Shown piece after piece: positions 14,610 to 14,789 of a DNA stretch of 38,116 bases (within the stretch, counting starts at the first letter, position 1; each line of letters starts with the position of its first letter). The position numbers and the translations under genes were made by a program. The notes beneath the pieces are model-generated. The model was not told where the DNA came from and searched no databases. It saw only the letters and a program-made list of their open reading frames with translations. Origin of the DNA: Desulfobacteraceae bacterium (GTDB lineage Bacteria > Desulfobacterota > Desulfobacteria > Desulfobacterales > ETH-SRB1); the NCBI GenBank assembly GCA_014237365.1, contig JABZFQ010000235.1, positions 1 through 38,116 of the forward strand. The letters are read 5' to 3'.

Positions 14610-14789
14610 GGAACGTGGACGAAATAACTTCCCCAACTATGCATCACAGATTCAGGCCACCTTTGCCCGATCTCAAATCCCAAAAATATCAAAATAGCCA
14701 GCTATTCCACCAACTTTTGTGATTTGAGATCGAACAAATTTGACCCAAATCTATGCGCCTGCTTGGGGAAGTTATTTCGTCCACGTTCC
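14610..14789 (+). repeat. 180-bp hairpin element, full copy
   Basis: GGAACGTGGACGAAATAACTTCCCCAACTATGCATCACAG ... CTTGGGGAAGTTATTTCGTCCACGTTCC. Confidence 0.96.

What the first reader, a model, noticed from the sequence alone, without database searches (positions are those of the whole stretch)
14689..14789. The element donates the same in-frame C-terminal peptide tail to different proteins
The ORF at 14689-15891 ends RNVDEITSPSRRIDLGQICSISNHKSWWNSWLF. The sulfotransferase at 16965-19490 ends RNGDEITSPSRRIDLG. The pseudogene ORF at 34820-35371 ends RNVDELTSPSRRTDLGRICSISDHKN. The ORF at 37811 runs into RNGDEITSQSKRIDLGQLC. In all four, the host reading frame enters the same end of the element in the same frame, whichever strand it lies on. 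This recalls Rickettsia palindromic elements that insert in frame in genes, but here as a C-terminal cap.
Basis: partly seen in the sequence, partly recalled or inferred. Interest (0 to 1): 0.85.

Follow-up and report, generated by a model that had tools for sequence, protein, structure and literature searches.

The report
Common MITE giving chance protein tails
A very abundant small mobile DNA element in a sulfate-reducing bacterium sometimes lands at the end of a gene and replaces the protein's last few residues; the shared tail is a by-product, because only one of three reading frames into the element gives a visible tail, and that frame is used less often than chance.

Summary
Four ORFs in the window run into the same end of a 180-bp palindromic element and end in (R)N(V/G)DEITSPSRR.DLG. 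One of the four is an unsupported TTG ORF and one is a nuclease gene cut short. The element is a MITE: 27-bp-plus inverted repeats, 3-bp TWA target duplications, no coding capacity, about 1,180 end matches in a 3.49-Mb genome. In 1.28 Mb of the same genome, 59 coding ORFs run into an element; they split 25, 27 and 7 over the three frames, and the tail frame is the rarest (expected about 31%, P = 7e-4). The other two frames stop at once or after about 5-10 residues, so only the third leaves a tail to notice. In paired copies most insertions keep the native stop codon or replace the last 1-12 codons; insertions within genes are 14-fold depleted. Tails do occur on intact proteins: single-copy lipoyl synthase has a 26-residue tail in place of the five-residue end seen in three of four congeners read. 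Coxiella QMITEs do the same (PMC5896051), so this is a new MITE family of a known kind, not a dedicated C-terminal cap system.

The parts
14610..14789 (+). Full MITE copy (180 bp), L end left, R end right; flanks TAT / TTA
14689..15891 (-). 400-aa protein without a Pfam family (GT-like genes around it); last 33 residues come from the R end of the MITE
16835..17014 (+). Full MITE copy (180 bp)
16965..19490 (-). Sulfotransferase (PF00685), 841 aa; last 16 residues come from the R end of the MITE
34820..35371 (+). Truncated PD-(D/E)XK nuclease gene (PF08011) ending in the MITE tail
35292..35410 (-). Partial MITE copy (R end entered by the truncated nuclease ORF)
37811..38116 (+). TTG-start ORF with 42 codons before the element; not supported as a gene
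37941..37997 (-). MITE fragment (R end)
401..580 (-). Full MITE copy
9071..9250 (+). Full MITE copy with TTA/TTA target duplication
12910..12952 (+). MITE fragment (L end) overlapping the 3' end of an ABC transporter ORF, entered from its broken inner side
32815..32994 (+). Full MITE copy with ATA/ATA flanks
34340..34519 (+). Full MITE copy with TTA/TTA target duplication
37316..37477 (+). MITE copy with an internal deletion, TAA/TAA flanks

Best explanation
The repeat is a non-autonomous MITE that inserts at TWA (TAA or TTA) and duplicates those 3 bp [shown]. Copies survive where they do little harm: between genes, on a gene's own stop codon, or in its last few codons [shown by site densities; selection as the cause is inferred]. 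A gene that runs into an element does so in one of three frames. In two of them the target and the terminal repeat hold a stop at once (TAA, or TAG made with the element's first G) or after about 5-10 residues (GTWTK*, ERGRNNFPK*). In the third, xTW AGG AAC GTG GAC, there is none, and the ribosome reads 16-46 residues into the hairpin [sequence shown, translation inferred]. The shared C-terminal peptide is therefore what the only open entry frame encodes, seen where a chance insertion or a later indel put a gene in that frame. It is a tolerated by-product, not a donated module.
For: Target duplication: 119 of 173 paired copies have identical 3-bp flanks, nearly all TAA/TAA (60) or TTA/TTA (56); the middle base agrees in 116 of 137 (P = 4e-17). 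Frames: 25/27/7 over 59 coding entries in 1.28 Mb and 519 ends; 33 of 59 stop at once, 15 have tails of 10 residues or fewer. Null from TWA phase in the last 10 codons plus stop of 794 genes: 572/533/488; sites overlapping the stop codon 407/183/0, so the tail frame never keeps a native stop. Densities per TWA site: intergenic 94/12396, stop-overlapping 15/807, coding 22/41590. Of 44 paired entries, 20 keep the native stop and 17 replace the last 1-12 codons. Homologues of the 400-aa protein end 0-15 residues after the junction; congener LipA ends YKKVKY* where G000 has YNVDELTSTSRR.... A tail search in 5.8 billion proteins found two hits, both ending within a domain or truncated.
Against: No transposase with these ends was found, so mobility rests on target duplications, copy number and one empty site. 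Gene calls were by hexamer score and length, not homology, and the contigs were partly chosen for length or for holding hits. Stop-codon sites are hit 2.5 times more often per site than intergenic ones (P = 0.004), which plain tolerance does not fully explain. Replication outside this genome is small (9 entries, 1 in the tail frame).
Confidence: 0.9

Rival explanations
1. The element is shaped to donate a functional C-terminal cap: one end is kept open in one frame so that host proteins gain a common tail that acts as a tag, anchor or degron.
For: The tail frame is open for 16-46 residues in tailed genes and the peptide recurs; conserved LipA carries it.
Against: The tail frame is the least used (7 of 59). 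The other end of the element gives a different tail (RNVDEITSPTMHH...). In the genus search most listed tail copies in this genome lie in open frames well under 100 aa. Almost no tailed proteins exist in public databases.
Confidence: 0.03
2. It is a coding palindrome like Rickettsia RPEs, inserted in frame within genes and tolerated by protein folding.
For: Palindromic, similar in size (RPEs about 150 bp, PMC10969869), very strong hairpin (-114 kcal/mol), adds peptides to proteins.
Against: In the window copy at 14610-14789 five of the six frames through the element hold stops, the exception being L-entry frame 0 after its early TAA is counted too (one search shows a stop in every frame); no paired copy lay well inside a called gene ORF; coding insertions are 14-fold depleted.
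Confidence: 0.02
3. The element targets gene 3' ends or stop codons because it prefers them as sites or because its hairpin serves as a terminator or mRNA 3' stabiliser.
For: Stop-overlapping TWA sites are occupied 2.5 times more than intergenic ones; the RNA hairpin is extreme.
Against: No base preference beyond TWA is evident in 131 clean insertions; 35 of 142 placeable copies lie between divergent genes and only 16 between convergent ones, unlike a terminator. Survivorship or gene-call bias could give the excess.
Confidence: 0.12

Closest known systems
QMITE1/QMITE2 of Coxiella burnetii (PMC5896051)
   Same: MITE copies overlap gene 3' ends, supply the stop codon or a short C-terminal peptide, and give the same tail to different proteins (pntAA and CBU_2058 both end AQTHRRQLKGAR; Table 2); EnhC gains 33 residues in one strain.
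   Different: Different sequence, host and target duplication; about 45-78 copies (0.93% of the genome) there against about 1,180 end matches here.
Rickettsia palindromic elements (RPE; Ogata et al., as described in PMC10969869)
   Same: Short palindromic repeat contributing residues to host proteins.
   Different: RPEs insert in frame within genes and are read through; this element closes the reading frame and is depleted in genes.
Tourist-like MITEs of PIF/Harbinger (TWA duplications) and bacterial IS5/IS1031-type elements (TNA duplications); from general knowledge
   Same: 3-bp TWA target duplication and terminal inverted repeats starting GG.
   Different: No transposase with these ends was found, so membership is untested.

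Membership tests
MITE (miniature inverted-repeat transposable element) | Short (under about 400 bp), terminal inverted repeats, no transposase gene | tested here: met
   Paired copies about 180 bp in 133 of 173; inverted repeats at both ends; no ORF of its own
MITE (miniature inverted-repeat transposable element) | Target-site duplication | tested here: met
   TWA duplicated in most pairs
MITE (miniature inverted-repeat transposable element) | Empty orthologous site | tested here: met
   Congener LipA genes run on without the element at the same codon; one site, and the junction in G000 has lost 4 nt
MITE (miniature inverted-repeat transposable element) | Related autonomous element supplying the transposase | tested here: inconclusive
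   Not found near PF01609 loci; PF13586 gave one hit whose ends were not examined; no long-range end pair examined held a transposase
Rickettsia palindromic element | In-frame insertion inside genes with the frame open through the element | tested here: not met
IS5/IS1031-derived MITE | Ends match an IS5-group transposon | tested here: inconclusive
   Only the 3-bp TWA duplication agrees
REP/RAYT elements | REP hairpins without target duplication, mobilised by Y1_Tnp proteins | tested here: not met
   13 Y1_Tnp matches exist, but the element has clean target duplications

The most novel reading that the evidence does not exclude
The tails, or the hairpin in the mRNA behind them, have a common effect on the proteins that carry them (for example a shared destabilising or localising tail on LipA and glycan enzymes), so that the MITE rewires the turnover of many genes at once.
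Probability: 0.04. Interest if true: 0.6.

Novelty: new member of a known kind. Interest (0 to 1): 0.25.

Why it matters
It settles a tempting pattern: shared tails in one frame are expected when two of three frames into a repeat are closed. It also gives a well-counted case of how a MITE with a stop-like target (TAA/TTA) can load a bacterial genome with hundreds of copies at little cost, because the element restores a stop codon in two of three frames, with occasional C-terminal replacement on a conserved enzyme (LipA) as a side effect.

Tried and rejected
Autonomous element: PF01609 and PF13586 in the genome and long end pairs in other genomes (L117 1,037 bp, L193 899 bp) gave none. Rfam: no match in the window. 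An RPE-like reading was rejected on frame and location. The apparent read-through after PurH (C253) was not counted as an interrupted gene because the protein looks complete at the junction (judged from general knowledge of the family). Pfam did not recognise the 78-aa piece beyond the broken nuclease, so the break rests on the partial PF08011 match and the continuing open frame.

Full report
Observation. The four tails are in the sequence as quoted. They come from one repeat, present in the window as at least ten full or partial copies on both strands. Two of the four ORFs are weak: 37811 is a TTG ORF with 42 codons before the element, and 34820-35371 is a PDDEXK_9 nuclease cut off in its domain.

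The element. Reading inward from either end it starts GGAACGTGGACGAAATAACTTCC. Paired copies are about 180 bp (133 of 173), largely self-complementary (the reverse strand matches itself at 74-79%), and the RNA folds to -114 kcal/mol (z = -18). It sits at TAA or TTA with that triplet duplicated. A pattern search found 640 + 541 ends in the 3.49-Mb genome against none for the reversed control. In a sample of 298 genomes of the order it occurs in 27, heavily in the same genus and patchily elsewhere. Contig names show that congeners include MAGs labelled EthSRB1, so the host is a Desulfobacterales-type sulfate reducer (inference from matching contig positions).

Why one frame. Entering at T-W-A-GGAACG, frame a reads TWA GGA ACG TGG ACG AAA TAA: stop at once if W = A, otherwise L-GTWTK*. 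Frame b reads WAG GAA CGT: stop at once if W = T, otherwise K-ERGRNNFPK*. Frame c reads xTW AGG AAC GTG GAC GAA ATA ACT: open for 16-46 residues in the tailed genes. Only frame c can show a long shared tail, apart from frame-b entries at the L end or copies whose early stop has mutated. Seeing the same frame in every visible tail is therefore ascertainment.

Survey. 87 contigs (1.10 Mb, 462 ends), later enlarged to 1.28 Mb and 519 ends, were scanned for coding ORFs running into an element (at least 80 codons, hexamer score). Result: a 25, b 27, c 7; without the window a 25, b 27, c 4. Thirty-three stop at once, 15 have tails of 10 residues or fewer, 11 longer. The TWA phases available in the last ten codons plus stop of 794 genes are 572, 533 and 488, so about 31% in c is expected; P = 7e-4 for depletion. 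Leaving out entries that stop at once, c is 7 of 26 against 49% expected (P = 0.02). R and L ends do not differ (P = 0.23). The window, with all three of its coding entries in frame c, is an unusual cluster and was noticed for that reason.

Where insertions survive. Per TWA site the occupancy is 0.76% intergenic, 1.86% at sites overlapping a stop codon and 0.05% in coding DNA. With the flanks joined in a script to model the empty site, 20 of 44 paired entries keep the native stop and 17 replace the last 1-12 codons. For the 400-aa protein, homologues end 0-15 residues past the junction and the joined flanks give five residues. The sulfotransferase's nearest relatives go on into an FkbM domain, while others end near the junction, so its history is unclear.

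Tails on real proteins. The best case lies outside the window: lipoyl synthase, one copy above the family cut-off, reads ...RSSYHAKELYNVDELTSTSRRTDLGQICSISDHKS*. Three of four congener sequences read here end ...RSSYHAKELYKKVKY*, and a fourth ends with a different 17-residue stretch. The junction lacks four bases of the usual end, so the original entry was probably frame b and an indel moved it to c (inference). A tail-only search of 5.8 billion proteins gave two hits: a methylase ending within its domain and a RadC-like protein with only the N-terminal domain. That search depends on shared words and on length, so it is a lower bound.

Precedent. Coxiella QMITEs supply stops and C-terminal peptides to functional genes and give the same tail to two different proteins (PMC5896051). 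The Rickettsia comparison (PMC10969869) differs in location and in the open frame. This is a new MITE family doing a known thing, with a high copy number; a literature search under these terms gave no earlier description of it, which does not prove there is none. Translation of the tails has not been shown.

Noticed in passing
G000:C197:3762-4706 (L212), minus strand: Lipoyl synthase, single copy above the family cut-off, carries a 26-residue tail encoded by the element; three of four congener copies read end in KKVKY instead.
   Followed up: yes
L117:3381-3440: The end of an element is repeated in tandem as an 18-bp unit (GGAACGTGGACGAAATAA), which would read RNVDEI three times; it may come from nested insertion at the TAA inside the terminal repeat.
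   Followed up: no
L188 (G052:C1:24000-42000): A gene whose product has MQQG/IPQG repeats before a conserved C-terminus is duplicated about four or five times in tandem, each copy followed directly by one element.
   Followed up: no
G000, e.g. C49:29799, C240, C88:5821, C166:14956: Minimal forms of about 30 bp (GGAACGGGGACGAAATAACTTCCCCGTTCC) and of about 67 bp exist beside the 180-bp class.
   Followed up: partly
G000 gene stop codons: TWA sites overlapping stop codons are occupied 2.5 times more often than intergenic ones (15/807 against 94/12396).
   Followed up: partly
window 31068-31289: Short tandem and near-tandem repeats (39 and 75 bp) within the 859-aa ORF at 30260-32839.
   Followed up: no
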